Shown piece after piece: positions 24,069-62,592 of a stretch of 64,000 bases of DNA. Each line of letters starts with the position of its first letter. Positions within the stretch are counted from its first letter, which is position 1. Below the pieces are notes generated by a model, which worked only from the letters and a program-made list of their open reading frames with translations, did no database searches and was not told where the DNA came from. The stretch covers positions 2,231,001 through 2,295,000 of the forward strand of contig CM077653.1 of the NCBI GenBank assembly GCA_039707465.1, given 5' to 3'. The translations under genes and the position numbers were made by a program. The stretch comes from Rhabdophis nuchalis (taxonomy: Eukaryota; Chordata; Lepidosauria; Squamata; Natricidae).

Positions 24069-24173
24069 TCATGTGAGTTTCGTTCGGCAGCAGCTGGGCA
24101 GGTAGAGCACCCCGATGTGTCACCGGGGAGGGTGTGAGAGGGGAAGGAATGTGCAACCTCCAGAGCATATAAG
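24069..24173 (+). promoter_or_regulatory. Probable PLET1 core promoter
   Basis: A TATA box (atataag) at 24167-24173 would place the start of transcription near 24200, about 90 bp before the ATG. A TCATGTGA element (E-box/M-box type) lies at 24069-24076. There is no CpG island, which fits a tissue-restricted gene. Motif-based inference. Confidence 0.5.
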
Positions 24174-24290
24174 AGCCGGGCTGGTGGCTCGGCTGCCAAA
24201 GATCTCCAGGGCAGACCAGGTGAAGCCTACGGAGAGGAGGAGGAGGAAGAGGAAGAGAGGAGAAAAAAAGGAAGGAGAAGACTTTTGAAG

Positions 24291-24459
24291 ATGACTTGGG
24301 TGAAGCTCGCCTGGCCGCTCTTCTTCCTGGGGGCCCTGCTGGTTTCGCCAGCTTTCTGCCAACCAGCCCCTTGCGAGGTGGTCAAGAAGACGGCGCCACG
24401 GGGTTCCTTCCGGCTGGACGTGGAGCCCCGCGATTATACACCCAACGAGATCTATACAG
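24291..24459 (+). CDS. PLET1: PLET1 exon 1 (coding part)
   Basis: Encodes residues 1-56 including the signal peptide; ends ...NEIYT in phase 1 before donor gtaggg. The 5' UTR from about 24200 is purine-rich (GGA repeats). Confidence 0.85.
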
Positions 24460-28475: not shown

Positions 28476-28724
28476 GCTCTGAGCCAGGCATCAAGAGCAT
28501 GTTTGCGTACAACCGGGATTTGAGAACTAACAGAGTGATTTTCTTGGGAATCCAATAGCCCTCCTGCAAAATCCACTCCCTTCCCTCCTCCCCCTCCCAG
28601 TCTCTCTTTTCTGCTGAACTCAGAGGCTGATTCCAGAACCCTTTTCAGCCTCTGTCTTGCCCAGAGTTGAAATGCCATTTTTTTTTACTACTGGTTCTGT
28701 GGGTGTGGCTTGGTGGGCGTGGCA

Positions 28725-29456
28725 GGGGAAGGATACTGCAAAATGCCCATTCCCTCCCCACTCCAGGGGAAGGATACTGCAAAATCCCCATTCCCTCCCC
28801 ACTCCAGGGGAAGGATACTGCAAAATCCCCCTTCCCACTCCAGGGGAAGGATACTGCAAAATCCCCCTTCCCACTCCAGGGGAAGGATACTGCAAAATCC
28901 CCCTTCCCACTCCAGGGGAAGGATACTGCAAAATGCCCATTCCCTCCCCACTCCAGGGGAAGGATACTGCAAAATCTCAATTTCCTCCTCATTCCAGGGG
29001 AAGGATACTGCAAAATCCCCATTCCCTCCCCACTCCAGGGGAAGGATACTGCAAAATCCCCATTCCCTCCCCACTCCAGGGGAAGGATACTGCAAAATCC
29101 CCCTTCCCACTCCAGGGGAAGGATACTGCAAAATCTCCATTTCCTCCTCATTCCAGTGGAAGGATACTGCAAAATCCCCATTCCCTCCCCACTCCAGGGG
29201 AAGGATACTGCAAAATCTCCATTCCGTCCCCACTCCAGGGGAAGGATACTGCAAAATCCCCATTTCCTCCTCACTCCAGGGGAAGGATACTGCAAAATCC
29301 CCCTTTCCACTCCAGGGGAAGGATACTGCAAAATGCCCATTCCCTCCCCACTCCAGGGGAAGGATGCTGCAAAATCCCCATTCCCTCCCCACTCCAGGGG
29401 AAGGATACTGCAAAATCTCAATTTCCTCCTCATTCCAGGGGAAGGATACTGCAAAA
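28725..29456. repeat. Minisatellite, 19 units of 36 or 41 bp
   Basis: 'ggaaggatactgcaaaat' (one unit reads 'ggatgctgc') occurs 19 times with spacing of 36 or 41 bp. The 41-bp units carry 'ccccattccctcccc' or 'ctcaatttcctcctc', the 36-bp units 'cccccttcccac'. The 5' edge, 'gtggcttggtgggcgtggc', is the flank of the same motif in the dispersed repeat at 63.2 kb, identifying the seed. Multi-frame open reading frames of 250-280 residues on both strands are artefacts of the periodic, stop-free unit. Confidence 0.95.
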
Positions 29457-30122
29457 TACATAGCAAGAAGAATTCCAGGGGGGTGGGCATTTGAGGCCCG
29501 GATAATCAGGCTAAAAGGGTGAAATCACTGTCACAAACTGGAACTGACATTCTACTCCACCCTCCCCCCCCCCGCCCCCACCCTCCAGTCCTGCAAAGAT
29601 GCTGACCGAAGCATTTCGTAGCAGGCCAATCGGACAACACACAACTGCCCCACTGAAATACACATTAGAAAAGTTCTCAAGTTAAACAGCCTCTTTCATC
29701 TGTTGGTCCGACCGACCATCTGGACTGCGGATCCTTCACAGCAGCGAGACTGAAGGAGGTGGGGAGGGGAATCCTTTTTTTTTTTAACACTTTTTGCTAT
29801 TTAAATCCCCTGCTGGTAAGGCATTCTCCAGTGTTAAAAAGGGGGGGGGGAGTCTTTATCTTCTCTCCAAAAATAACTTGGGAGCTGCTCGCTGCTGCTA
29901 CTACTACTACTACTATGTGTCTGAAGAACTAACTCTCGTGGGATTTGGAGAAAAAAGAAAATTGGGGGAGGCAAGAAGAAAGAGAAGGAGGATTTTAGAA
30001 GCTCGGAGTCCTGATGTTGGACTTCCAAATGTTCTGTTCGTGGGTTTTTGTTTTTGTTTGTTGTTGTAAATACTGTATCTTTGGGAAACGTATTTTGAAT
30101 CTCCATTGTGCTTTCCAAAGCC

Positions 30123-32441: not shown

Positions 32442-33200
32442 CATGAACAACCAAGTAGCAGTCAGAAGTCTTGATGGAAACTCTTTTGATTTCACAACCT
32501 GTGGACGGACTTCAGCATAGTTTCAATTGGGAAACTGGGACAATCCTAGGCCAAGCCAAGCTCAAAAGCGCCAGGGAGTGTCTAGAAGCCAAGCACTCTG
32601 ACCAATTAGCCTTCAACAGACTCGTAGGCATAAACAATATCTGTAGACTATGCAAAAGAGACAATCGATAAGTCAACAAGAGAACGCAAAGACCAAAGCA
32701 CTTGTTCACCAGCGATCAGTACCCAGATGAACATAGATTAACTCCAAGATTAACATGAGATCAACAATCCCGTAACCAAGACCCCAAGCAAGAAACTGTC
32801 AAACAAGCCAACCAGGGGTAGGTTGCTGCTGGTTTTACTACCGGTTTGCAATGCGTGTGCATTCTTAAATGTAAATGGTTCTACGCAGATGCATGCGCAA
32901 TCACAGAAATCCAAAATGGCGGTGGCCCAGCAACAGTGAAGGAACCGGTCCGGGGGGGTGGCAGGCCTGAGTCACTGCTGGTTCTGCGACCCAGGCCGAA
33001 CCGACAGCAAACCACCTCTAAAGCCAACATTAAAGAGCTCAATCAAATAACCTCAACTACCCAACACTTATGACTACCCAACCATAATCGACAGAACAAA
33101 TCACTAGAATATAAGAGCAAACCCACTTCTTTCTTGGACTGATGATGTTACCCAGTTGGGTCATGAAACATCTTCAAGAAAGCAACCAAGGAACCCCCAT
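32442..33200. repeat. Relic repeat region with an inserted element
   Basis: 33125-33195 ('tgatgatgttacccagttgg', 'catcttcaagaaagc') matches the family at 15.58 kb; 32500-32800 probably belongs to the same larger element. An unrelated insert at about 32812-33018 resembles 35.69-35.96 kb ('gcctgagtc', 'gacccaggccg'). Confidence 0.5.
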
Positions 33201-33225
33201 TCTCCCATCGCGGGTGATTTTGGGT

Positions 33226-33795
33226 GCCCCAAGGCAAGCCCACATAACACCTCTCCTGCGCGAGCTGCACTGGCTGCCTGTGGCCTTTCGAGTGCGCTTC
33301 AAGGTGTTGACAACCATCTTTAAATCGCTCCATGGCTCGGGGCCTAGCTATATACGAGACCGCCTCCTGCCCCATACATCCCTTCGTCCGATCCACTCCC
33401 ACAGAGAGGGTCTTCTCCGGGTGCCGTCGGCTGGGCAATGCCGGTTGGCGACACCCAGGGGAAGGGCCTTCTCTGTGGAAGGGCCTTCCCTCTGGAACGA
33501 CCTACCCCCCGACCTCCGCACTACCTTGGACCGCCGCCTCTTCCGCCAACGTCTTAAGACACATTTATTCCAACAAGCCGGCCTAGCATAGCCCCCCGTT
33601 TCTGACTTTTTACACATAAATTGCAATTTGGCAGGGTTTTAAATGGGTTTTAGCATGGGTTTAACAATTTAATAATGTTTTAATGATGTATATTGTTTTT
33701 TACTGTGGTTTTAATAATGCCTGTGCGCCGCCCTGGGTCCTAACAAGGAGAAGGGCAGGGTATAAATTCGAATAAATCTAAATCTAAATCTAATC
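33226..33795 (+). mobile_element. L2-like LINE 3' end
   Basis: Open frame to about 33591: LLRELHWLPVAFRVRFKV, LPHTSLRPI, SLWNDLPPDLRT; then the 3' UTR 'cgccgccctgggtcc' and a short AT-rich tail. Confidence 0.85.
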
Positions 33796-45202: not shown

Positions 45203-45230
45203 TCACATGAGGGCTGGTGGGGTTATTTAA
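45203..45230 (+). promoter_or_regulatory. Putative PTS-like promoter: M-box and TATA-like element
   Basis: TCACATGA (45203-45210) is the complement of TCATGTGA, the core M-box bound by MITF/TFE factors. A TATA-like ttatttaa follows at 45223-45230, about 50 bp before the ATG. There is no CpG island. Function is inference from motifs. Confidence 0.4.
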
Positions 45231-45280: not shown

Positions 45281-45345
45281 ATGGAGGACAAGATTATTTT
45301 CCTGTCCCGCACCACAACTTTTGCAGCTGCCCACAAACTGGACAG
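45281..45345 (+). CDS. PTS paralogue exon 1
   Basis: 65 nt, residues 1-21 ([20 protein letters not shown] then D) and two bases of S22; donor gtaag. It is the same length as PTS exon 1 (65 nt) although the residues before F14 are unlike. H18 is the first zinc ligand. Confidence 0.85.
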
Positions 45346-48300
45346 GTAAGGGTTGCCAAGACAGGGTGGGGAAGCGAATCTTGAGAAGATAGCACCTAGG
45401 ACACTTCTGGGATGGTTTCTCAGCCATCATCCAAACTGACCAACGCTGGAGTTGGGGGAAGAACCACAGCAGAGATGAAAGTCAAACCTGGTATCCAAGG
45501 GTAGGAATGTCCAACTATTTAGAACCTGGAAGAGTAGGGCTGGAAAGGACATTGGAGGTCTTCTACGCCAAACCCCTGCCTGTGGCAGGAGATCCTACTC
45601 CGCTTATATTTAAATACCTCCTTCACAAATATCAGAGAAGAGGTCCACTTCTAACATTCATTCCATAAACGCTAACAGGTTTAAGATCCCCCTTGCCTTT
45701 CTCCTCCAATTCATGTCAGGGCTACAGCACATCCACATGAAATCAAAGGTCTTCTGCTACCTTGCAGGCTGATTTAAATGTTCAATGGGTTGTGGCGTCT
45801 GCCAGTGTACGCCAACTCAGTTCATTTCAGTCCTTAAGTTGTGACTTAAGTCTTCAAAGGGATATGAGATACGTGGGTTCGGAGTAATGAAGTTAACCAA
45901 CCTAACAATCTGGTTTTGTAGTCAAGGCTGATGGGGATCTTGATAGTGTAGGTGGGTCCCATCATTTGGCTGGTGAGAGGGTGCTGTCAGTTGTTTTTCA
46001 CATCTGCTATTTACACTGTTTGTGATTCTGTTGTATTGTTGTTATTCTCTTTTTAAACTTTGTCAGCTGTCCGGAGTCTTGTAGTATCCTGTACGTGAGA
46101 TGGGAGCCCTTATACGTTCTAAAAATAATCCATTTTTCCCCCACCACCTACTTTGTGGACATGTTTAAGAGCTTCTATCATCAGCAGTTAGCTCCATGGA
46201 TAAAATTGGGGCAGAACATTAAACCAATGTGTGTTTGTTAGGATGTGGCTGACAATGTTATACAAGCCTAGATGTTGTGACTGGTTAAGGGTGGCTTCTG
46301 ACTTAGGTCGATATGCAAACCCCACCCAATAATGACTTAGCCAGTGAACGAGAAACAATCAAATCAGGACTGAATACGTTGATTGACACAGTCAATGAGT
46401 AAAGTCACGATGGATGAAGCTATGTCAACGATAGGGATAACTTCTCTCGGGTGGGGATCTCTAGCATTGAAGTTGACGACCTGTGGACTTCATCTCCCAG
46501 AATTCCCCAGCCAGAATGTATTATGGCAGGGGTGTCCAACCTTGGCCACTTTAAGGCTTGTGGACTTCTGTTCCCAGAATTCCCCAGCCAGCATGGCTGG
46601 CTGGGGAATTCTGGGAGTTGAAGTCCATGTCTTGACATCGTAGGCACCTTGATGGTTCTGGAGGACTAGAGTCATTATAAAATACCTCAGCAGGTATTCT
46701 ACAAAGAATACCTCTACAAAGTTGGCTGGAGAAGTCTGGGAGCTGAAGTCCTTCAGACTTAAAAGTTGCAAAGGTTGGGGACCCCTGCTCTAAACAGAGG
46801 TGCATTTGTCAAAGGTCGGTGTTTTAAGCAAGAAAATAGATGTGTTCACCGGTTCGTGCTTGCTAGAGTAAGGGCAGAGGAATTGGGACCAGCAATAAAA
46901 AGATATTAGCCTCTTGGGGGGGAGGAGAAGTAAGGAACGTTTGTCCAGTGAAGGAAAATGCAAGACAATCCCAACTAAGGTTTAACAGGGAGAGAGACCC
47001 ACCCTATTCAGAAGACAACTCCTCGGCAGAAGGAGGGCTTCAGGTGAGCAGGCTTGACCAGAATCTCTTCTAGATTAGAATCAGCTAGATATATAAAATA
47101 TTCCTCATACGGACACAGGTAGGTGGCGAGATCCAGTTTTGCAGTAATGGTTATCCAGCCAGTTGTGCTCACCTACAACAGAGAAGAACATAAATTATTT
47201 GCAGAGGAGGAGCATTCGGATTAAAATAAATGGAAATAAAAACTCGGTAGGGAGATCATCTGAACACAAACAAGCTAAGGGAAACTGGAGTTGATACAGG
47301 ACTTCACTTCGGAGAAGGTATCTCAGGTGACCTCCTCATCCCCTCCTCAATTCCAAATCTTTCTTTTTTTCCCCGTGTCAAACGTGCCCAGAGACCCCTG
47401 ACATCTGCAAGTAGCTCACTAGGTCAGGGTTTCTTCACCTGAGCAATTTTTAAGATGCATGGGCTTCAACTGGCCAGGGAATCCTGGGAGTTGTAGTCCA
47501 CACAAGTCGCTGAAGAAACCGCGGGTGAAATCTGATAGTCCACCTTCTTCTTGTCCACCTTGACCGTCAATGACATTTCCAGAAACTGATGGCCTTTGGT
47601 CCTTAAAGGTCTACTGGCTTGGCTTTGGTCTCAGCTGCCAAAATACCTTCTCTCTTTCCAAATGTCTATGGAGGATTCTCAGTCATCCTGGTTGTCCCAA
47701 AGGAGCTTTTCTCAAGAAGCAAATGGACTTCCTTGGTTTTTTTCTTTGAAGACGTTTCGCTTCTCATCCAAGAAGCTTCATCAGCTCTGAGAGGAGCTGG
47801 AAAGATTTTTTTTAAAAAAAATGCAAGGGACCAGCTGCCTGCTAGGAGTCTAAATCCTTCCATTCCCCTCCATCCAGTCAGAGGGGAAGAAGTTTCTTTT
47901 TAAAAGTTTTTTATTTCTCCATTTTCAAAACTTACAACCACATGTATACTATTACATAGCCAACATCATGTTGTATTGTTAAATGGTTACATCAATCTGT
48001 CTTGCCATCAGCTCCCAAAATCAATTATTGGCTCTCCATCCACCCTATTTGTATCTTATCCATTACTTTCTTCTCCCTCTTTCCTCGCCCTCCCTACCTC
48101 CTTTCTTCCCTCTGTCTCCTTCTCTTCTCTACTTCCCCTTCCTCTCTCCTTCTCCTCCCTCCCACTACCCCTCCTTCTTTCTCTCCTCCTCCTCCCTACG
48201 TCCTTTCTTCCATGGGTCATCCTTCCCTTCTCTATTTCCCTTTCCTCTCCTCCTCTCTCCTTTCCACTCCTTCTTTCTCTCCTCTTTCCCCCCTCTCCAC

Positions 48301-51300
48301 CCTCTCTCCTATCCCTCTCTTCTTCCCTTACCTCTCCCCTCTACTTCACACTCTCAAGCTGAAGAAGCTTCTTGGATGAGAAGAGAAACATCTTCAAAGA
48401 AAAACAAGGAAGTCCAGTTGTTACTTGAAAAAAAGCAACTTTTGGGACAACCATGGAGGACTGGGAATCTCCATACACTCCTTGGCTTCTCTCTTTCTAC
48501 TGAAACGTGGTCTGATCTCTCTTCCTCAGTTTGCTCTTCCTATTTATTTTATTTTATTTATTTTGGTTTGTCAAGCATGCATGAGAAAACAAGTATGAAT
48601 TTAACATATAAGCATCTAAGAATAAGCAGGCATACATACATACATGAGTTCAAATCAATGGGGGCAGTAGGGGAGGGACGGTAGGCACACTGGTGTGCTT
48701 ATGCACACACCCCTTTACCGACCTCTTCGGAATGGGGTGAGGTCAACAGTAGACAGTTTGAGGTGAAAGTTTTGGGGGTTTGAGGCTGTAACAATGAAGT
48801 CGGGTCAAACAATCCAGGCAATGACCCTGTTGAGTTTCTATCTATTGTTTGCCCGAGTATTATTATTTTTTTTATTTATTGAAAAAGTTTTTCACCAACA
48901 GTTTTCCCCCTTTCCCCCCCTTCCCCCAAAATTCCCTCCCATACCCTCCCCAACCTCCCCTTCCCCCCCCTCAACCCCCTGACGTCCGCTATATGCAACC
49001 CTAGTAATTCCAAACACAATATATGTTATTCATTCCCTTCATATTCTACCCCCTGCTGACTACCTTATTCATCTAATCTCCATCAGCTAAAAGCTACACA
49101 ATATTTTCTAGTCTGATACTTGTTTTGTATATAATCAATCCACTTTTTCCACTCCTGTGTATAAGTCTCTTGCATCTGGTCCTTTAAAAAAGCTGAAATT
49201 TTTGCTATTTCAGCAAATCCAGCCATCTTCTGCGTCCATTGGTCTATAGTAGGCAAAACATCTTTCTTCCAATGCTGGGCAACCAGCAGTCTAGCTGCTG
49301 TCACCATATACAAAATCAATTTTGTTTCCCCCAATGTAAAATCCCTAACTATACCCAATAAAAACAGTTGTGGCGTAAATTGTATTTCCCGAGTATTATT
49401 GAGGTTGAAGCTGAAGTAGTCTTGGTGGGACGTTGTAGCAGACAATGTTGTGTACTACGCTTAGTAGTAGGCGTATTTCTAGGTTGCACGGGTCCAAACT
49501 TTCAAGCCTGGTGCCATAAGGCAGCAAAGCTGGCTGGAGAAGTCTGGGAGCTGAAGTCCTCCAGACTTAAAGTTGCAAAGGTTGGAGACCCCTGCCATAA
49601 GGGATTCTGTTTACAAGCCATATTTCTCCTCCTCTCGTCTTTCAGCAAACACCTGAGCAAAGATGAAAACATGGACATCTTTGGGAAGTGCAATCACACC
49701 CACGGACACAACTATCAAGGTGCTGGGCCTGGTTGAGGACCGGGGCAGGTTGGCCTCTGGAGGGGGCATGAATCCCTGAACCCCTTTCCCTGGCGGGGAG
49801 GTGTGGGGTGGGAGCAGGGAGGGAGACAAGCAAGGCTTGGCAACGCGGCAACTCCTCTGTTAATCTCTTGCCGCCGCCTGCTTCTTCTGGCGTTGTGCTT
49901 CCACCTTGAGGTGCAGAAGCAGGGTTGCAGCTAATGACTGAGACGTCTTTTCTTTTCTCTTCCTCCTCGGCCATGCAGTGACGGTCACTATACGTGGAAA
50001 GGTGAGTAGCGGTTTGAGATTTCTCCATCCTTCGGGAGCACGAGGCTTAAGGGCAAGCAGCAGCTGGGCAAGACTCCATTCTCTCATTGATCGTCTTTTG
50101 GTTCAGCCCTTTTGGCCATCCTTCGCAGGGGTGAAATCTAATTCCCCTCCTCCACTGGTTCTGTGGGCGTGGCTTGGCGGGGAGGGGGGGAATCATGTGA
50201 CTGGGTGGGCGTGGCCAACTTTTTTCCCCACTTTCTGCTGTTTTAAAAACTTTTTAAAGCGTTTTTAAAATGCTTTAAAAAGCAGGGGGAAAAGGCTTTT
50301 GATGGGCCATGCGATCCTTGGCTTTGTTTTTTATTACCATTCATTCATTCATTCATTCATTTATCTATTTATTTATTTATTTATTTATATTTCTATCCCA
50401 CCCTATCTCCCCAAAATGGGACTCAGGGCGGCGCACAGGAATTACAGGTTTTTAATATGGGTTTTAGCACGGGTAAATAATTTAATATATTTTAATGTTG
50501 TATATTGTATTTATTGTGGTTTTTAAATAATGCCTGTGCGCCGCCCTGGGTCCTAACAAGGAGAAGGGCGGGGTATAAATTCGAATAAATAAAATAAAAT
50601 AAAATAAAAATCTAAAAATACAACAATACAAAATTCTACAAAAGTTAAAACTAAAATTAAATAATTTAGCCCGTGCTAAAAGAACAATTTAATTTAAAAC
50701 CCAACTCTTAAGAATAGCATCTTAGTTCAGTTCACAGAACCAAGGACAATCGTCCCTAATGGTTCAGCCGAACCGGGAGGATTTCACCCCTGATCCTTTG
50801 GCCGTCTCCGGTCAGAACTTCCACCGCTTAATTCGATTTCCCAGTCATAGCCTCTTAGCCACTTGATGCCTTTCCCCAACTATGCCGGGCACCGGGGAAA
50901 TTGGCATTACTCCCCACCACCACCAAGAACTGGCACTCGGTGGTAGGTGGCAGCAGCAGCAGCCTATGGAGGTTTTGCCATGCCCTCTTTTTCGGGTGCT
51001 CCTTAGGAAGGCATCCTCATCCTCACAGCAGAGGAAGGACGTCTGAAGGCCCTCAGGGTTCCCCTATTTTTTCCATTGAAAAAGCCAGCCAATGTGGGAG
51101 AAAGGAAGGGGTTTTTTCCCACATAAGTGAGGACTTTAAAGGCTCCAGCCGTGTTGGTCGGTGGAAGATGGAACCAAAGAAGAGGGAGTAAGGGAGAAGG
51201 CACACCGCCAGCTGCGTGGCCGAGGGGGGGCAGTCCCCGTGAGGGTCTCCGAGAGACGCTGCCCTTCCAGTTAGTTTTAGGGGGTTGTGCATTTCGGTTT

Positions 51301-52675
51301 CCCCATGGATCTTTTCCAGTCTATTAAAAGAATGTTTTTCCCCATGCAGATTGACCCCATCAGTGGCATGCTGATGAACGTTTGCAAGCTGCATGAATAC
51401 ATGGAGGTATGGTTAGACAGTCAGTCGGACAGTGAGGAGGGTTGGGGAGGAACCTGGGCCAGTCCTGGAGTCTGGACTGGTCGAGGACCATCTGTATTAA
51501 TATCCTGGGCCCTAGTTTCTTTATTTTTATCCCACCTGTAGTGTTTTTAACACCTAATGATGCCCCTCAACGTAGAAAATGTCCACTTTGGGCGGAAAAA
51601 AACGCCGGGGTTTTTAATGCTTTTGTCCTCAGATGGCCATCACCGAACCTCTCGATCACAAGAACCTGGACGAAGACGTGGATTATTTCGCCAATGTTAC
51701 CAGGTAGTAGCCGGGAAAAGATGGGAACGGTGGTGTGACTCCCCCTCTCCCCAAACCCTCTAAAGCAGGGGTCTCCAACCTTTGCAACTTTAAGTCTGAA
51801 GGACTTCGGCTCCCAGACTTCTCCAGCCAGCAAAGCTTATTATGTATACACCCACATAGCAAAGCTGGCTGGAGAAGTCTGGGAGCTGATGTCCTTCAGA
51901 CTTAAAGTTGCAAAGGTTAGAGACCCCTGCTCTAAAGTTAACCCAAAAAGTTTCCTTTACTAGGAGCGCCAGCAGCCCCAGGCAAAAAGTCGGCTAACAA
52001 GTCCCTCCGACTAGAAGATTAATAGTTGTCTCCACCTCTTCATCTCCGCTCCCTGCTTTTTATCCCCAGAGCTTGGTGGCTTTTCCGTCCCAAGGACCGG
52101 CCCATAGATTTCCACTGCTCTCCTCTCCTTTGCCTTCCGTGCATCTGTGCGTCAGGCACTGGATCCAGCTGTTCCTCCTCTTCCTCATCAGCCACCTCCA
52201 GACCTGGGGGCTGTCGACTCTCCATCTGAGGGCTGACGGACAGCCCAGGCTCCGCCTCTCTCTCTCTCTGCCAGCTCCATTCCCTCCCACCCCCAAGTGC
52301 TCTCAGGCCCTGACTCCCACTCCTCCTCCTCCTCCTCCTCTGATTCGGCTCTTGGAGGGGCCACAAGAAGCTGCAAGGCACTCACACGCCCACAGGGTGC
52401 CACCCTTGGGAATAGCGGACCTGATGCCTGTGGCCAAAGAGTAGCCAAAAGCAACAGGAGGGACATAAGAACAACTGAGAGTTAAAACCGCTTCTCAGGA
52501 ACAGCTCCTGAGCTCCCTTTTCTCTCCCATCCTTCTTCTGCCCTTCTTCAGCTCGACCGAGAACCTGGCCATGTACATCTGGAACAGCATGGAAAAAATC
52601 CTTCCCTCCGGGTGCCTCTACAAAGTGAAGATCTACGAATCGGACAAAAACTTTGTGGTTTTTAAGGGCAACTAA
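45281..52675 (+). CDS. 6-pyruvoyl-tetrahydropterin synthase paralogue, six exons
   Basis: Spliced CDS 45281-45345, 49646-49719, 49979-50001, 51350-51406, 51633-51703, 52552-52675 encodes 137 residues; all five introns are GT-AG with phases 2, 1, 0, 0, 2, identical to PTS at 57-62 kb. The ATG has A at -3 and G at +4 and follows an in-frame stop at 45263. The T-fold enzyme residues are all present: zinc ligands H18, H41, H43; nucleophile C37; D81-H82; E126. The active-site loop reads [11 protein letters not shown]-x3-HGH, two residues shorter than the C-x5-HGH of canonical PTS and equal in spacing to bacterial QueD. PTS enzymes convert 7,8-dihydroneopterin triphosphate to 6-pyruvoyl-tetrahydropterin in the cytosol. 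No lesion is visible, so it is probably active, though substrate or rate may differ. Confidence 0.87.
45525..45650 (-). mobile_element. CR1 LINE 3' end in intron 1
   Basis: 'ggaaaggacattggaggtc' and 'ccctgcctgtggcagg' at the reversed CR1 terminus. Confidence 0.7.
45651..46479. other. Intron 1, single-copy part
   Basis: No repeat recognised. Confidence 0.4.
46480..46795. mobile_element. Cluster of palindromic MITE copies in intron 1
   Basis: 46480-46515 and 46527-46630 carry the 'actcccagaattccccagcc' core (the second starts CAGGGGTGTCC); about 46715-46789 is a single-arm copy ending GGGGACCCCTG. Right-hand duplications are eroded. Confidence 0.7.
46796..47650. other. Intron 1, mostly single-copy
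   Basis: An eroded MITE relic at 47430-47520; otherwise unassigned. Confidence 0.4.
47651..48480. repeat. Fold-back element with an internal pyrimidine tract
   Basis: Left arm 47660-47785 ('ttgaagacgtttcgcttctc') and inverted right arm 48355-48475 ('ggatgagaagagaaac') enclose about 370 bp of (CCTT/CTCC)n at 47990-48350. Same family as 60.68-61.11 kb, which has a similar enclosed tract. Confidence 0.65.
48555..49510 (-). mobile_element. LINE fragment (unassigned clade) split by L1
   Basis: 48555-48864 and 49401-49510 are one element in reverse: 'caagcatgcatgagaaaac', 'tttaccgacctcttcgg', 'gaagctgaagtagtc'. On the minus strand it reads as an RT C-terminus with a [11 protein letters not shown] segment. 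Confidence 0.6.
48865..49387 (-). mobile_element. 5'-truncated L1 LINE with 13-bp target duplication
   Basis: Minus strand encodes an L1 ORF2 C-terminus ([53 protein letters not shown]), then a G-rich 3' UTR and a short A tail. cccgagtattatt is repeated exactly at 48852-48864 and 49388-49400, so the insertion is recent on the scale of its neighbours. Confidence 0.9.
49522..49594. mobile_element. Single-arm MITE with intact target duplication
   Basis: 73 bp: only one arm, from 'cagcaaagctggctgg' to GGAGACCCCTG, yet flanked by an exact 8-bp duplication ccataagg (49514-49521, 49595-49602). It ends 51 bp upstream of exon 2. Confidence 0.8.
49646..49719 (+). CDS. PTS paralogue exon 2
   Basis: 74 nt against 80 nt in PTS. 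Acceptor 'cgtctttcag', donor gtgctg (non-consensus at +3 to +5). Encodes S22-Q46 with nucleophile C37 and zinc ligands H41 and H43. Confidence 0.9.
49979..50001 (+). CDS. PTS paralogue exon 3 (23-nt microexon)
   Basis: Acceptor 'ggccatgcag', donor gtgag; encodes VTVTIRGK, matching VEVTVQGE of the minus-strand PTS, whose exon 3 is also 23 nt. Confidence 0.9.
50110..50780. repeat. Intron 3 repeats: dispersed element and L2 nested in L2
   Basis: 50145-50230 holds 'ggttctgtgggcgtggc' sequence. A minus-oriented L2-like 3' UTR (about 50375-50443 and 50606-50720) is split by a plus-oriented L2-like 3' UTR (about 50444-50605) with an (AAAAT)n tail. A (CATT/TTTA)n lies at 50338-50390. Confidence 0.7.
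50781..51349. other. Intron 3, single-copy part
   Basis: No repeat recognised. Confidence 0.4.
51350..51406 (+). CDS. PTS paralogue exon 4
   Basis: 57 nt, residues 55-73 ([19 protein letters not shown]); acceptor 'cccatgcag', donor gtatgg; the same size as PTS exon 4. Confidence 0.92.
51633..51703 (+). CDS. PTS paralogue exon 5
   Basis: 71 nt, residues 74-96 plus part of 97: [19 protein letters not shown], with catalytic D81-H82. Acceptor 'gtcctcag', donor gtagta. Confidence 0.92.
51766..51929. mobile_element. hAT-like palindromic MITE, CAGGGGTCTCC subfamily
   Basis: 164 bp with an enlarged centre; exact 8-bp duplication ctctaaag (51758-51765, 51930-51937). In intron 5. Confidence 0.9.
52060..52395 (-). 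repeat. Dispersed repeat with acidic frames, reversed
   Basis: Reverse complement of the family at 7.38-7.72 kb; minus-strand frame is Glu-rich ([17 protein letters not shown]). Confidence 0.5.
52552..52675 (+). CDS. PTS paralogue exon 6 (coding part)
   Basis: Acceptor 'gcccttcttcag'; residues 97-137: [18 protein letters not shown], then [10 protein letters not shown] with catalytic E126; stop TAA at 52673-52675. Confidence 0.92.
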
Positions 52676-54130: not shown

Positions 54131-54224
54131 ATGATTTTACAAAGCAAATTGACGCTGATTGCTTATCCGGACATAAAAACAATGTCCCCATTGTCTCTCG
54201 GTTTGCAACGTGACTCATCTTCTC

Positions 54225-55175
54225 GTGCCAGATCCTCTTGGCGAGGGAAATGACTCTGCCAGCCCCACCAAAGCATCTTTGGGCAGAAGGACAAGCAGAG
54301 GTCATCGAAACTCTGGCCATTGGGGGCGAATCACTGGCCCCCGTGGAGAGGGCGCGCAATTTGGGTGTCCTCCTGGATTCCCGGCTGTCCATGGAGGACC
54401 ATGTGGCGGCCGTGGCCAGGGGGGCGTTTCATCAGGTACGCCTGATGCGCCAATTGCGCCCCTTACTGGACCGGGCTGCCCTTCGCACAGTCACTCAAGC
54501 TCTCGTGACGTCCCGGCTCGACTACTGTAATGCTCTCTACATGGGGCTTCCCTTGAGGTGCACTCGAAAGCTACAGCTAGTCCAAAACGCAGCCGCGCGG
54601 GTGATTATGGGAGCCACTAGATGCTCCCACATAACACCGATCCTGCGCGAGCTGCATTGGCTTCCTGTGGTTTTTCGAGTGCGCTTCAAGGTTTTGACAA
54701 CTATCTTTAAAGCGCTCCATGGCTCGGGGCCTAGTTATATGCGAGACCGCCTCCTGCCCCATACATCCCTTAGACCGATACGCTCCCACAGAGAGGGCCT
54801 TCTCAGGGTGCCGTCGGCCGGACAATGCCGACTGGCGACACCCAGGGGAAGAGCCTTCTCTGTGGCGGGCCCAGCCCTTTGGAATGACCTACCCCCTGAA
54901 TTACGTACCATCACCGACCTCCGCCTCTTCCGCCAATGTCTTAAGACATATTTGTTTCAACAAGCCGGCCTAGCCTAACCTCCCATGGGGACTTTTAGGT
55001 AGTTTTAAATTGGGTTTTTAAAATTTGGTTTTAGCGCAGGATAGGTTATTTAATAGTTTTTTAAATTATATTTATTGTATTTTGTATGTTTTTAAATTTT
55101 CCTGTGCGCCGCCCTGGGTCCTTCTTGGAGAAGGGCGGGATATAAATTTAAATAAATAAATAAATAAATAAAATA
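54225..55175 (+). mobile_element. L2-like LINE with intact C-terminal reverse-transcriptase frame
   Basis: A single open frame of 246 codons (54238-54978) covers the end of the reverse transcriptase: RNLGVLLDSRLSMEDHV, SRLDYCNALYMGLP, ITPILRELHWLPVVFRV, ALWNDLPPELRTI. The 3' UTR and (AAAT)n tail follow to 55175. No frameshift, so it is the youngest L2-like copy here. The endonuclease and most of RT are missing. Confidence 0.9.
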
Positions 55176-57246: not shown

Positions 57247-57391
57247 TCATTTCTCAGAAGGCACTCCCTCCTCTCCCTTGTAAACCACCACGTTCTTCTC
57301 GGTTTCATAGACTTTGACTTTATGAAGAGCTCCGGTAGGAAGGCGCTTCTGGAGATTGTCCCAGATAAAGACAGCCACGTTTTCAGTAGTA
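57247..57391 (-). CDS. PTS: PTS exon 6 (coding part)
   Basis: Acceptor 'tccctccag' on the minus strand; residues 99-146: [28 protein letters not shown] with E128; extended C-terminus EEGVPSEK then TGA. Confidence 0.95.
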
Positions 57392-60300
57392 CTGGAGGGA
57401 GGGGAAAAACCTTTTTGAGAATTACGCTTCCTTGCTAGTGATATTTTTAATCATTTGCACTGTGGCTGCACCAGAGGGGGAGCAGGGGGAAACCCCTCCT
57501 CCTGCAGCTACGGGGTTTCCTTCCGCAGAGTCTTACACAAGTGAGCGTGTTGAGGTTGCAGGTTTGCGTTGGCCTGGAATTCTAAAACCCAGCTGCGAAA
57601 CACCTTAAAGGCCACCAGGTTGGGATTTCCTGAACCAGTGGAAGACAATCAGTCTTGATTTCCCCAACAGTGAAGAACACTGCTGTTGAAAACCCAAGTT
57701 TCTAGTCCTCCTTGCCACTGGTAGAGGAAATCCCCTTACCCAGCAGGATTTCCCCCTTACGCCACCCTGAGTCCCTTCGGGGAGGTAGGTGCGGGATAAA
57801 AATCAAACAAATTCAAATTCAATTCAAATTCAGCAGGCAGGGAGAAAAAAATAGAGCAATCCTTTACAAGTTTTTTTCCCCTCCTGATGTTACATTAAAC
57901 GTCTGAAATTTAGGCAATTCAGAGTCCTTTAAGAGAGAAAAATCCCTCAAAAGCACTCTCTATACCCCAAGTTCTGGGCATGTAGTGGCTCAGGGGCTAA
58001 GATGCTGAGCTTGTCGATCAGAAAGGTCAACAGTTCGGCAGTTCGAATCCCTAGCACCGCGTAATGGAGTGAGCCTCCGTGACTTGTCCCAGCTTCTGCA
58101 AGCCTAGTTCAAAGGCATGTAAAAAATTCAAGTAGAAAAGCAGGAACCACCTTTGGTGGGAAGGGAACAGTGTTCTGTGCGCCTTTGGCATTGAGTCATG
58201 CCGGCCACATGACCACGGAGACGTCTTCGAACAGCGCTGGCTCTTGGGTTTTGAAAGGGAGATGAGCACCACCCCCTAGAGTCAGGTACAACTAGCACAT
58301 AGGTGTGAGGGGAACCTTTACCTTTTACCCCAAGTTCAGGATTAGAAAAGAGGCCTGCCCAGGGCCAGGAATAGAGTCGCCTACCTGACCACCTCTGCGA
58401 AATAGGGGACGTCTTTATCCAGATTCTTGTGATCGAGTGGTTCCATTATGGCTTCCTAGAAGGCAGAGATGTGAGGCGTTTAGCTCCTTGGAAAACACTC
58501 CAAAGTTAATCAGACGCTTTGGGAGACCGGCCTCATGCGGCAGATAAATATTTGATGGCATGAGTCAAGAGCTCCTCCGGCGTTTTTGCTGAGAAGTGAA
58601 ATCAACCTGTAGCCTTTTCTTGAGTGTTTTCTACTTGGGTAAAAAAATTCCCCCCTCTCCACCCACTGGCAGCCAGCCCTCTCAATTCCTGGCGAACAGA
58701 CGGGGAAGAAATGGAGGGAGTGACAGATTTTATTTTCCTGGGCTCCAAGATCACCGCAGATGGGGGACTGCAGCCAAGAAATTAAAAGAGGCTTGCTCCT
58801 GGGGAGGAAAGCTTTGGCAAATCTAGACAACACACTAAAAAGCAGAGATATCATCCTGCCAACAAAAGTGCTTATAGTCAAGACTATGGTTTTCCCAGTT
58901 GCAATGGATGGCTGTGAAAGGTGGACCATAAGGAAGGCTGAGCGCCAAAGAATGGAGGCCTTTGAACTCTGGTGCTGGAGAAGTCTCCTGCACTGAGTCC
59001 CTTGGACTGCAAGGCCATCCAACCAGTCAGTCCTAGAGGAGATCAACCCTGACTTCTCTTTAGAAGGCCAGATCCTGAAGAGAAACTCAAAGACTTTGAT
59101 GAGAAGGAAGAAGGACTCCCTGGAGAAGAGCCTCATGCTGGGAACGATGGAAGGCAAAAGAAGAAGAAGGGGACGGCAGAGAAGGAGGTGGCTGGATGGA
59201 GTCACTGAAGCAGTCGGCGTGAGCTTCAATGGACTCCAGAGGATGGTAGAGGAGAGGAAGGCCTGGAGGAATGTTGTCTATGGGATTGCGATGGGTCGGA
59301 CACGACTTCTCAATTAACAACAACAACCATCCCCTGCTTTCCCTTGGAGGGTTATGACTTCCCCTTCTTATCTTCCACCCACACGCCTGAAGAAGCTAAA
59401 GTTGTCAAGCTGCTCTCCACACTTCCTGGTGTGCCTTGATTCCCACAGTGGCTCCCCGACTGCCTGGTCAATACCCACAAAGTCCATGCGGCTCATCCCT
59501 GCTGGCAACCTCTGGGATCCAAAGGGCTTCCTTACCTCCATGTAGGCTTTGAGATCCGTCAGGTTGATCACCATCCCTGTCAGAGGATTGATCTAGAAAG
59601 GAAAATACGAAAGGAAAGATTCAGAGTGGGTGTAATAAATAAAATTTGTAATATTTATGCTATTTCTGATAATCTCTTTTGCTGTTTAACAGAGAAAGAT
59701 AAGGTTCCAGAGATGGCTTTATAGAAACTGGAGGGAGATATGGAATGAAGAGATGTTTGGCTCTATTTGGAAAGATAGTGTTGTTGTTATTATTAATTAT
59801 ACTTGCTGGAGGTGAAGGGGGCAGATTTGTTTTTCTATTTGTTTCTTTTTCTGCACTTTTAATTTTAAAAAACATGTTTTCTTTATTCTGTAAATGTAGT
59901 ATACACTTCACTTGTATAATACAATATTTAATAAACTTAGGGGGGGGGGGGAAGAATAGAAAGAAAACCCAAATCTTTAAAATCTGAAAACATTTCTCTT
60001 ACCTCTCCTTGCACAGTCACTTCCACTAGAAGAAATGAAAAGGAGCAAGGAGGAAATATCAGGTTGCAGTTTTGATTTCACATGACGATAATCAGCAAGC
60101 AAATATAATAACAAGCCACATGAATAACTTCCGTCAGGAATTTGAGAAAGCTTCCAGCTTTCCTTTACACAGACAGCCCTCCACTTATGACCACAACCGA
60201 GCCCAAACTTTCCGTTGCTAAGCAAGTCAAGTGAGTTTTGCCTCATTTTACACCCTTCCTTGCTGGAGTTCCTAAGTGAATCTCTGCAGTTGCTAAGTTA

Positions 60301-62592
60301 ATGGCACAGTTATAAAATGAATCTGGCTTCCCCATTGACTTTGCTTGTCAGGTCGCAAAAGGGGATCACAGGACTTCAGAACGCTGCCATCGTCATAAAT
60401 ATGAGTCAGTTACCAAACGTCCAAATTTTGAAGATGTGATCATGGGAATGACTGCAATGACAAAGGCCAGTTGTAAATTTCCTCTTTACGGAGTCCAGTC
60501 TAAGTTGATAACTGGAACCAAAGTTTTAGTTTTCCAAGCTTTTGGGGTGATGATGGGAGCCCACCATCAGGAAACCTCTCTCTCTTTCTCTCTCTCTCCA
60601 GAATATCTCCTTTTTACCACTAAGGTCATTTAGAATGGTCACTCAACCTGTGGTTATTCAACTAGGACTAGCTAGCCAACATCCCAAAGGTGCCTTTTTT
60701 TTTTCAAGAGGCAACTGGACTTTCTGGTTTTTCTTTGAAGTTGTTTCACTTCTCATCCAAGAAGTTTCTTCAGCTCTGGATGGATGGAGGGGAAGGAATG
60801 AAGGAAGTGAGAAAGGGAAGGAGAAAGGATGGAAGAAAGTAAGAAAGGGAAGGAGGGAAGGAAGGACCCTGAAGATACAGATAAACTTGATGACCTACAT
60901 AACTCTCTAAAAGGATGCAAATACCCAGCTGTCTGCAAGGAATATAAATCCTTCCATTCCCCACCATCCAGTCGGAGCTGAAGAAGCTTCTTGGATGAGA
61001 AGGGAAATGTCTTCAAAGAAAAACCAGAAAGTCCAGTTGGCTCTTGAAAATAGCACCTTTGGGACAACCAAGACCTGGAGGATGGAGAACCTCCATAGAC
61101 ATTTAGCTAGCCAATGTAACAAAATTGTTCAGGTAACACTTCTACTTGCAATGAATTAGTAATGGTTGGACGTTGCCATAGGCCAGGGGTCTGCAAAGTT
61201 GGCTCTTTTAAGACTGGTGGACTTCAACTCCCAGAATTCCAACTTTGCAGACCCCTGCCATAGGCCATTCATTATTGATGGTGTTTTGGAAGCAATGTAT
61301 AAAAGCTAGTGGGTTTCAGCAGGTGTGCAAAATGAATAACTGCACGTATTACATCTGTCCCAGGAGTGCAGTTTTCATAGGATGAGGGACCCACGACAGG
61401 TGAGTTTCAATCTCAAAGGCTCATCGCTCTGTGGATGATGGGGCATCAGATCCCCCCTTTTCTCCAGCTTCTCTTGGTTTCAGCGATGGAGGCCATCCCC
61501 ACGTCTCACCTCTGTAGTTGTGGCCGTGGCCGTTGGGGTTGTTACATTTCCCAAAAAGTTTCTGGTTTTCTTCATCGCTCAGCAACGGGCTGCAAGAGAA
61601 GACGGGGGAATTGTGGTCTTAACAATAAAGGCAGGGCTAGTGGTCACGTCTGGCGCAATTGTGTTAATCACCTTGAAAGGCGGACACTCCACAGAGTCCC
61701 TGGCTGGACTTCACCCACCGGACTGGCTGAGCTTCATCGGACCAAGTGGGCTTCATCAGCCGGGACCCCCAACTCAGAGGCCCAACAGAAGGATCCAAAG
61801 CAAGCCAGAGAGGGGCGAAGAGGGACCTGGGCTGGCTTTCCAGAGGGTCCCAAGGCGGGACCAGATCCCTGCATGAGGAAGCTTCACCCTGGGAGATCCC
61901 ACGGCCAGATAAGGAAGGGCTTCCTGACCTGGAGAGCTATGGGGTGTTGGGAGGGGGGTGTCACCCTACCTCTTTGAAGAAGGGGGGGGCGGGGGGGGGA
62001 GACTGCTGGTGGGGAGGGGCAGAGGGGAGGGGTCTGAAGCCCAGGTGGCCCAGCCACTCACCTGGAATGCTCAGAGGGATCCTGCCCTGGTGGGGAGGGA
62101 GGACAGACTAGATGACCTCCAAGGTCCCTTCAGGTTGCATAAAGAAACCTGGACATGGGCAGCACCACCTTCCAGCCTGCTCTCCTCCAAGCATGGGGGC
62201 TGGGACAGCCTAGAGGGGGGGGGCAAGCATGGGGTCGGGGCGCCTAGTGGGCAGGGCTGCCTTTAAGGGGTTCAAAGGCTGAGCCGCCTGGGGGAAGGAG
62301 GGGGGCCTCCCCATTCTTTAAAAGCATGCATAAGAACAGCCACACCTGGGGACCGGGGGGGGGGGCCTCCATGCACGCTTTGCCACCTGCGCCCACCCAC
62401 CCACAAACACACACACCTACCCCGGGGGCGCCCTTTCCCCTCCGGCGCTCTGCACACGCTCAGGAGCCCTCTCTTCCTCCTCTGTGCTCCCCCCCAAACA
62501 AAACGAGCCCCCTCCCCCTCCCGTCACCTGTGCAGCCGGTGGGAGGCGCTGAAAGCCGCGCAGCGAGAGACCCGGGCCCGCGGCGGCGCCAT
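57247..62592 (-). CDS. PTS: 6-pyruvoyl-tetrahydropterin synthase (PTS), six exons
   Basis: Spliced CDS complement of 62528-62592, 61510-61589, 60003-60025, 59536-59592, 58385-58455, 57247-57391 encodes 146 residues (human 145). All introns are GT-AG. PTS forms the second step of tetrahydrobiopterin synthesis, 7,8-dihydroneopterin triphosphate to 6-pyruvoyl-tetrahydropterin, as a zinc-dependent cytosolic hexamer. Zinc ligands H18, H43 and H45, nucleophile C37, D83-H84 and E128 are all visible; the loop is the canonical [12 protein letters not shown]. The start codon has G at -3 and G at +4 within a CpG island. The N-terminal arm is several residues shorter than in human, and the position of the human regulatory Ser19 is alanine. 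It faces PLET1, as in mammals, with the paralogue between. Confidence 0.95.
57757..57840 (+). mobile_element. Short L2-like LINE tail in PTS intron 5
   Basis: 'gccaccctgagtcccttc', 'gcgggataaaaatc' and an AATTC-rich tail. Confidence 0.6.
57975..58335 (+). mobile_element. tRNA-derived SINE in PTS intron 5
   Basis: Forward copy: 'gtagtggctcaggggc', B-box 'cagttcgaatccc', body to 'gaggggaacctttacc'. Confidence 0.85.
58385..58455 (-). CDS. PTS: PTS exon 5
   Basis: 71 nt, residues 76-98 plus part of 99: [19 protein letters not shown] with D83-H84. Confidence 0.95.
58676..59330 (+). mobile_element. BovB/RTE LINE in PTS intron 4
   Basis: The longest BovB piece (655 bp), in plus orientation, antisense to PTS. 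Frames read [12 protein letters not shown], [27 protein letters not shown], then [18 protein letters not shown] and [11 protein letters not shown], ending 'caattaacaacaacaac'. One frameshift. Confidence 0.9.
59536..59592 (-). CDS. PTS: PTS exon 4
   Basis: 57 nt, residues 57-75: [19 protein letters not shown]. Confidence 0.95.
60003..60025 (-). CDS. PTS: PTS exon 3 (23-nt microexon)
   Basis: Encodes VEVTVQGE; acceptor 'catttcttctag', donor gtaag. Confidence 0.93.
60168..60490. mobile_element. Dispersed element in PTS intron 2 (inverse of 56.4 kb)
   Basis: 'gacagccctccacttatg', 'ccccattgactttgcttg', 'atatgagtcagttacc'. Confidence 0.6.
60670..61115. repeat. Fold-back element enclosing a purine tract, PTS intron 2
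   Basis: Left arm 60680-60780 and inverted right arm 60975-61085 ('ttggatgagaagggaaatg'); (GGAA)n at 60790-60870 in the loop. 'tagctagccaa' occurs at both outer edges (about 60669 and 61103), possibly a target duplication. Confidence 0.65.
61184..61257. mobile_element. hAT-like MITE, internally deleted
   Basis: 74 bp: both CAGGGGTCTGC ends but most of one arm lost; exact 8-bp duplication ccataggc (61176-61183, 61258-61265). Confidence 0.9.
61510..61589 (-). CDS. PTS: PTS exon 2
   Basis: 80 nt, residues 22-48: [16 protein letters not shown] then [12 protein letters not shown]37, H43 and H45. Confidence 0.95.
61590..62527. other. PTS intron 1
   Basis: G-rich; a CR1 3' remnant at about 62105-62135 ('gatgacctccaaggtccc'); the 3' half is in the CpG island. 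Confidence 0.6.

What the first reader, a model, noticed from the sequence alone, without database searches (positions are those of the whole stretch)
45281..52675. A second, complete PTS gene with a QueD-like active-site spacing
Sequence shows six exons with intact splice sites and every catalytic and zinc-binding residue, but C-x3-HGH (C37, H41, H43) instead of the C-x5-HGH seen in canonical PTS here and in animals I recall. C-x3-HGH is, from memory, the motif of bacterial QueD, while C-x5-HGH marks tetrahydrobiopterin-type PTPS. A two-residue deletion in this loop should reposition the nucleophile relative to zinc. Inference: an old vertebrate paralogue with altered chemistry (other pterin product, or slower reaction), not a pseudogene.
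Basis: partly seen in the sequence, partly recalled or inferred. Interest (0 to 1): 0.88.

Follow-up and report, generated by a model that had tools for sequence, protein, structure and literature searches.

The report
Reptile-only second pterin-synthase gene
Snakes, lizards, turtles and crocodilians carry a second, very old and well-kept copy of the gene for a pterin-making enzyme, with a shortened active-site loop like that of a bacterial relative; what it makes is unknown and can be tested in a tube.

Summary
Observation confirmed. Window 45281-52675 (+) holds a complete six-exon PTS-like gene (PTS2, 137 aa) with C-x3-HGH for C-x5-HGH, tail to tail with a complete canonical PTS1 (62592-57247, -).

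It is no private defect. All 39 proteins with a single C-x3 site among 238 examined are from non-avian reptiles. In a tree built without the loop, PTS2 is one clade (100/100) with snakes, lizards, turtles and crocodilians; a third short-loop gene, PTS3 (lizards, turtle), is its sister (95/84). One deletion explains both. PTS2 keeps Cys, Asp, His and Glu in 22 of 22 rows; among lizards it is no less constrained than PTS1. Squamate PTS3 lost the catalytic His (12 of 12) and often the Cys.

A review confirms the motif rule, but PTS2 fails the QueD model: convergence, not descent. Best reading: an active, reptile-specific enzyme on dihydroneopterin triphosphate, specialised beside PTS1, perhaps for skin pterins. 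A changed product is possible but unshown. Expression, dN/dS and activity were not testable. Ten searches of the held library showed no paper describing it.

The parts
45281..45345 (+). PTS2 exon 1 (start codon; TFAAAHKL with zinc His18)
49646..49719 (+). PTS2 exon 2, 6 bp shorter than PTS1 exon 2; holds C37, H41, H43
49689..49709 (+). codons of the C-x3-HGH motif CNHTHGH (C37 to H43)
   Evidence: sequence and spliced frame
49979..50001 (+). PTS2 exon 3
51350..51406 (+). PTS2 exon 4
51633..51703 (+). PTS2 exon 5 (PLDHKNLD: catalytic Asp81-His82)
52552..52675 (+). PTS2 exon 6 (SSTEN, YES with Glu126; stop)
45203..45230 (+). possible core promoter: TCACATGA (45203-45210; E-box of MITF type, recalled) and TTATTTAA (45223-45230), about 50-80 bp before the ATG; weak
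   Evidence: sequence; TCAYRTGA occurs 4 times in the window against 2.65 expected, so only its place is suggestive
57247..62592 (-). canonical PTS1, six exons (62592-62528, 61589-61510, 60025-60003, 59592-59536, 58455-58385, 57391-57247), [11 protein letters not shown]; convergent neighbour of PTS2

Best explanation
PTS2 is a working, reptile-specific paralogue of 6-pyruvoyl-tetrahydropterin synthase. It arose from PTS by duplication before the living reptile groups separated, and a 6-bp in-frame deletion shortened the catalytic loop from C-x5-HGH to C-x3-HGH before PTS2 and PTS3 split. It most likely forms the usual PTPS fold and oligomer, binds zinc through H18/H41/H43, and uses C37 with the Asp81-His82 relay and Glu126 to act on 7,8-dihydroneopterin triphosphate. 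It would be a second, specialised source of pterins beside housekeeping PTS1, perhaps in skin pigment cells, with the nucleophile held in a QueD-like position. Shown: gene structure, orthology, age relative to reptile groups, residue conservation, predicted fold. Inferred: catalysis, substrate, oligomer, tissue, and any change of product.
For: Intact gene. Orthologues in snakes, lizards, geckos, turtles and crocodilians. Catalytic Cys, Asp, His and Glu in 22 of 22 PTS2 rows, zinc His before the loop in 21 of 22. In 15 pairs of six lizard species (pairs not independent) PTS2 is closer than PTS1 in 12 (mean tree distance 0.371 against 0.454), so constraint is like that of the housekeeping enzyme. 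Elapid to window is 0.27 in PTS2 (Pseudonaja) against 0.34 in PTS1 (Naja). The Crotalus PTS2 model (pLDDT 92) superposes on human and rat PTPS at 1.0 A over 135-136 residues and on the E. coli QueD entries at 1.5-1.7 A over 117-119. QueD, with CxxxHGH, shows that a Cys at this spacing can be catalytic. PTS1 starts in a GC-rich CpG island; no 500-bp piece at the PTS2 start met the same cut-off, and a TATA-like TTATTTAA stands before it, which would fit housekeeping against restricted expression.
Against: No transcript, protein or activity was seen. dN/dS was not measurable: only proteins of other reptiles were available, and PTS1-PTS2 dS is saturated (2.27). The snake stem of PTS2 is long (0.51); window-to-lizard distance is 1.07 for PTS2 against 0.68 for PTS1, and Python to window in PTS2 (0.38) exceeds Candoia to window in PTS1 (0.31), so snake PTS2 changed a lot and may have shifted role again. 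The sister gene PTS3 lost catalytic residues while being kept, so retention alone does not prove catalysis. The promoter contrast is weak: CpG observed/expected is 0.63 at the PTS2 start and 0.65 at PTS1, the difference lying in GC content (0.504 against 0.722). Birds show no such gene in the rows listed, so it seems dispensable in at least one lineage.
Confidence: 0.55

Rival explanations
1. Changed product. The short loop moves the nucleophile so that PTS2 cleaves the side chain (as QueD does, giving 6-carboxy-tetrahydropterin) or splits its products, feeding pterin-6-carboxylate and xanthopterin-type skin pigments.
For: C-x3-HGH is the signature that separates QueD from biopterin-type PTPS (PMC5041015). 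In Plasmodium PTPS the residue at the place of this Cys is Glu, and mutating it changes the product (PMC2229834 passages). Turtle skin contains pterin-6-COOH and xanthopterin but no detected sepiapterin or drosopterin (PMC6689573 passages).
Against: In PMC2229834 the E. coli and the human enzyme each gave only the single expected product, so spacing alone need not change what is seen. QueD equivalog model not met, 62.4-68.9 bits in four PTS2 rows against 89.25, no better than three PTS1 rows at 64.2-70.9. Pterin-6-COOH also arises by oxidation and is known from animals without PTS2 (recalled).
Confidence: 0.2
2. Regulatory or structural subunit. PTS2, and more clearly PTS3, joins PTS1 in mixed hexamers and alters the shared active sites instead of working alone.
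For: The PTPS catalytic triad is intersubunit (title of a reference cited in PMC2229834, seen). Squamate PTS3 lost the catalytic His in 12 of 12 and the Cys in 5 of 12 but keeps the zinc histidines of the HGH motif; its gecko model (mean pLDDT 79.5 with a disordered tail) still matches human PTPS, TMt 0.90.
Against: PTS2 itself keeps Cys, Asp, His and Glu in 22 of 22 rows, which a non-catalytic subunit would not need.
Confidence: 0.15
3. Redundant duplicate: same reaction, same place, with a tolerated short loop; kept by dosage only.
For: Catalytic residues kept; global fold kept.
Against: A long PTS2 stem (0.56) followed by constraint, and PTS2-specific residues (A15, I65, S127 at 91-95% where PTS1 has S, L, T at 85-100%), point to divergence of role.
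Confidence: 0.07
4. Pseudogene or private defect of this snake.
For: None found; no expression data were available.
Against: Intact frame and splice sites; same loop in orthologues of snakes, lizards, turtles and crocodilians.
Confidence: 0.03

Closest known systems
Animal 6-pyruvoyl-tetrahydropterin synthase (PTPS-II, PTS; human 3i2b, rat 1b66/1gtq)
   Same: Same exon plan as PTS1 of the window, same fold (Crotalus model 57% identity, 1.0 A over 135-136 residues), zinc histidines, Cys, Asp-His and Glu
   Different: Loop two residues shorter, C-x3-HGH for C-x5-HGH; separate clade (PTS2 100/100); four PTS2 rows score 108.5-117.8 bits on TIGR00039 (cut-off 125.5), which the three PTS1 rows tried pass
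QueD, 6-carboxy-tetrahydropterin synthase (PTPS-I; E. coli 4ntk)
   Same: C-x3-HGH spacing; tunnel fold (1.5-1.7 A over 117-119 residues for the E. coli entries)
   Different: 27-28% identity in the superposition; fails the QueD equivalog cut-off; nested inside vertebrate PTS in the tree, so the motif arose by convergence
PTPS-III of Plasmodium
   Same: A PTPS whose catalytic residue was altered; there the change gave a new product (PMC2229834 passages)
   Different: There Cys is replaced by Glu (ExxHGH); PTS2 keeps Cys and lacks that Glu
PTS3 of lizards and turtle (6-pyruvoyl tetrahydrobiopterin synthase-like; e.g. P0131, P0149, P0175)
   Same: Sister clade of PTS2, same short loop (13 of 13 tree rows)
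   Different: Squamate PTS3 lost the catalytic His and often the Cys; not found in the window, in 60 kb of flank, or among the snake rows listed

Membership tests
PTPS-II (biopterin-type PTS) | Common descent with animal PTS | tested here: met
   PTS2+PTS3 lie inside vertebrate PTS with an insect outgroup
PTPS-II (biopterin-type PTS) | Signature CxxxxxHGH (PMC5041015) | tested here: not met
   CNHTHGH in the window; short loop in 22 of 22 PTS2 tree rows
PTPS-II (biopterin-type PTS) | Makes 6-pyruvoyl-tetrahydropterin from dihydroneopterin triphosphate | not testable with these tools
   needs an enzyme assay
QueD (PTPS-I) | Signature CxxxHGH (PMC5041015) | tested here: met
QueD (PTPS-I) | NCBIfam TIGR03367 equivalog cut-off 89.25 bits | tested here: not met
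   four PTS2 rows 62.4-68.9 bits, three PTS1 rows 64.2-70.9 (relatives, the window protein itself was not scanned)
QueD (PTPS-I) | Makes 6-carboxy-tetrahydropterin | not testable with these tools
   needs an enzyme assay
PTPS-III | Signature ExxHGH (PMC5041015) | tested here: not met
   position -3 is Asn in the window (CNHTHGH); Asn, or Ser in Sceloporus, in the PTS2 rows
Pseudogene | Broken frame, splice sites or catalytic residues, here or in relatives | tested here: not met
Pseudogene | No transcript; dN/dS near 1 | not testable with these tools
   no RNA data and no coding DNA of relatives were available

The most novel reading that the evidence does not exclude
Reptiles re-evolved, inside the animal biopterin enzyme, the catalytic loop of bacterial QueD, and PTS2 is a vertebrate side-chain-cleaving pterin synthase (6-carboxy-tetrahydropterin or a split product) that feeds reptile skin pterins. 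PTS3 is a decaying or regulatory third subunit of the same gene cluster.
Probability: 0.2. Interest if true: 0.9.

Novelty: new variant of a known kind. Interest (0 to 1): 0.72.

Why it matters
Vertebrate tetrahydrobiopterin synthesis is usually drawn with one PTS gene (recalled). Here a vertebrate group keeps a second gene with a changed active-site loop and, outside snakes as far as seen, a third that has lost catalytic residues; where contig lengths could be compared the copies lie on one contig. It gives a small system for asking how loop length sets pterin chemistry. [quoted passage not shown] Transcript counts that merge the copies under 'PTS' could mislead colour studies.

Tried and rejected
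Rejected: pseudogene; private defect; QueD by horizontal transfer (the tree places it inside vertebrate PTS; exon plan shared with PTS1); gene-model artefact (the motif lies inside one exon).

Led nowhere or inconclusive: the AU test cannot date the duplication to the reptile stem rather than before the amniote split (p 0.246; the free tree groups amniote PTS1 without PTS2/3 at 72/87). Dropping outgroup and Pelusios gave PTS2+PTS3 at 92/85, no longer starred. Pfam on ten open frames of the window gave nothing. The MITF-type motif upstream of PTS2 is not enriched in the window. I obtained no coordinates of the predicted models, so the Cys-zinc geometry was not measured. A tblastn search for PTS3 gave nothing convincing in the window (best E 0.017, a tail match; hits inside the two PTS gene bodies were not displayed) or in 60 kb of flank (best E 0.098). 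The one whole-genome search that was answered (PF01242) matched only PTS1 exon 6 and missed PTS2, so it says nothing on copy number; protein searches of the genome did not complete. Papers on COG0720 promiscuity and on the QueD structure are not held. A first PTS3 distance figure (0.91) mixed two Anolis species; recomputed as 0.85.

Rows left out: the tree used 72 rows chosen by hand, 70 of the 238 fetched proteins plus the two window proteins. Fragments, isoforms, near-duplicates and chimeric models were dropped, among them P0007, P0022, P0023, P0024, P0028, P0050, P0099, P0107, P0113, P0122, P0204 and P0207. The 238 are only the best 120 rows of each of three searches that matched 6660, 7775 and 7796 proteins. 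Library searches list only their best rows (20 of 292, 15 of 1,422).

Full report
What is there. The six exons at 45281-52675 join into a 137-residue protein with GT-AG introns and no internal stop. The loop reads [13 protein letters not shown] inside exon 2, so C-x3-HGH is read straight from the DNA. A second, canonical PTS with [11 protein letters not shown] runs on the opposite strand from 62592 to 57247; the two genes face each other tail to tail, 4.6 kb apart. Exon lengths agree except for 6 bp in exon 2 and a longer last exon in PTS1. The window lies on a 34.75-Mb contig of a 1.92-Gb genome. By its closest relatives (Crotalus for PTS2, Thamnophis for PTS1) the host is inferred to be an advanced snake.

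Who else has it. Three protein searches were run: with PTS2, with an alignment of PTS2-like proteins, and with an alignment of PTS3. Together they listed 238 different proteins. Of these, 160 have one C-x5 site, 27 have two, 39 have one C-x3 site, one (P0198, unnamed source) has C-x3 and C-x5, 10 lack the Cys at a site (four two-domain proteins, six reptile PTS3), and one fragment lacks the motif. All 39 single C-x3 proteins are named as non-avian reptiles in those listings: snakes (for example Crotalus, Python, Pseudonaja), lizards and geckos, turtles (Pelodiscus, Pelusios, Emydura) and crocodilians (Gavialis, Alligator). No protein listed for a bird, mammal, amphibian or fish has the short loop. 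The tuatara row found (P0217) is a canonical PTS. Rows beyond the best 120 of each search were not seen.

Three genes, one deletion. A tree of 72 proteins, built without the loop columns so that the motif could not group them, gives PTS2 100/100 (22 rows), PTS3 99/86 (13 rows) and the two together 95/84 (92/85 without outgroup and Pelusios). The loop state needs one change on this tree. Within PTS2, crocodilians branch off first, then turtles, then squamates; the turtle-squamate join is only 95/69, the squamates 100/95. PTS2 in all three groups makes it at least as old as the common ancestor of living reptiles. Whether the duplication came on the reptile stem or before the amniote split is undecided. 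No convincing PTS3 match was found in the window or in 60 kb of flank.

Constraint. PTS2 keeps the catalytic Cys, Asp, His and Glu in 22 of 22 rows. PTS3 keeps the Cys in 8 of 13 and the His in 1 of 13, the turtle. Over 15 pairs of six lizard species PTS2 is closer than PTS1 in 12 (mean 0.371 against 0.454). Over 36 pairs of nine species PTS3 is farther than PTS2 in 36 (mean 0.85 against 0.43). The pairs share branches and are not independent. So PTS2 in lizards is held about as firmly as the housekeeping enzyme, while PTS3 looks like an enzyme losing catalysis. Against a simple story, PTS2 has a long branch on the snake stem (0.51), the window snake is farther from lizards in PTS2 (1.07) than in PTS1 (0.68), and within snakes the comparison is mixed: elapids 0.27 (PTS2) against 0.34 (PTS1), python or boa 0.38 against 0.31 (different species for the two genes).

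Chemistry. PTS2 nevertheless scores no better on the QueD model than PTS1 does (62.4-68.9 against 64.2-70.9 bits, cut-off 89.25), so the QueD-like spacing is convergent. The predicted structure of Crotalus PTS2 (pLDDT 92) matches human and rat PTPS at 1.0 A over 135-136 residues and the E. coli QueD entries at 1.5-1.7 A over 117-119. PMC2229834 (passages, part of the abstract among them) shows that Plasmodium PTPS has Glu in place of this Cys, makes a second product, and loses it when Glu is mutated to Cys. It also reports that the E. coli enzyme (taken here to be QueD, C-x3) and the human enzyme each gave a single expected product. So a changed product is possible but does not follow from spacing.

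Possible role. Reptile skin uses pterins. In turtles, pterin-6-COOH, xanthopterin and others were found but not sepiapterin, erythropterin or drosopterin (PMC6689573 passages). PTS1 begins in a GC-rich CpG island. The PTS2 start does not meet the cut-off used (GC 0.504), although its CpG observed/expected ratio (0.63) is close to that of PTS1 (0.65), and it shows TTATTTAA and TCACATGA before its ATG, the latter not enriched in the window. This is a lead toward restricted, perhaps pigment-cell expression, no more. The anole skin study PMC8290120 speaks only of 'PTS' in the passages read. Ten library searches listed no paper that I could recognise, from title and start of abstract, as describing this paralogue; only the best rows were listed, and subscription journals are mostly not held.

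Verdict. A real, old, conserved, reptile-specific PTS paralogue with a changed catalytic loop: new variant of a known kind. Existence and orthology about 0.97; catalytic activity about 0.75; changed product about 0.2-0.3. These figures are judgement.

Noticed in passing
proteins P0131, P0149, P0150, P0167, P0169, P0097, P0101, P0159, P0160, P0175, P0203, P0205, P0206 (and P0107): Third reptile PTS paralogue (PTS3): squamate tree rows have Lys or Arg in place of the catalytic His (12 of 12), and Sphaerodactylus, Eublepharis, Paroedura, Varanus and Elgaria also lost the Cys (at least three changes on the tree); the fold is kept in the gecko model. A candidate pseudoenzyme or regulator.
   Followed up: partly
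snake stem of the PTS2 tree: PTS2 has a long branch on the snake stem (0.51); 5 of 22 PTS2 rows have Ser for the first Thr of STTEN, the window protein among them.
   Followed up: partly
proteins P0135, P0181, P0214, P0229 and P0198: Two-domain PTPS proteins from metagenome-type sources in which the first domain lacks the Cys, or in P0198 has C-x3, while the second is C-x5: a natural parallel to an active plus altered pair.
   Followed up: no
24291-27109 (+): First exons of a gene with signal peptide (MTWVKLAWPLFFLG...), resembling PLET1, the neighbour of PTS in mammals (recalled); no Pfam match for 24138-24578. TCATGTGA lies at 24069.
   Followed up: partly
28618-29524: Minisatellite-like array open in several frames on both strands (repeated TPGEGYCKIP and related reading).
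   Followed up: no
877-1503, 33115-33591, 54214-54978 and L003: Recurring open stretches (RLLPHTSLRPIRSHREGLLRVPSAGQCRLATPRGRAFSV...LWNDLPP), probably the end of a reptile LINE (recalled; no Pfam match for the three window stretches); they coincide with small CpG-rich patches, one of them (54.0-55.0 kb) between the two PTS genes.
   Followed up: no
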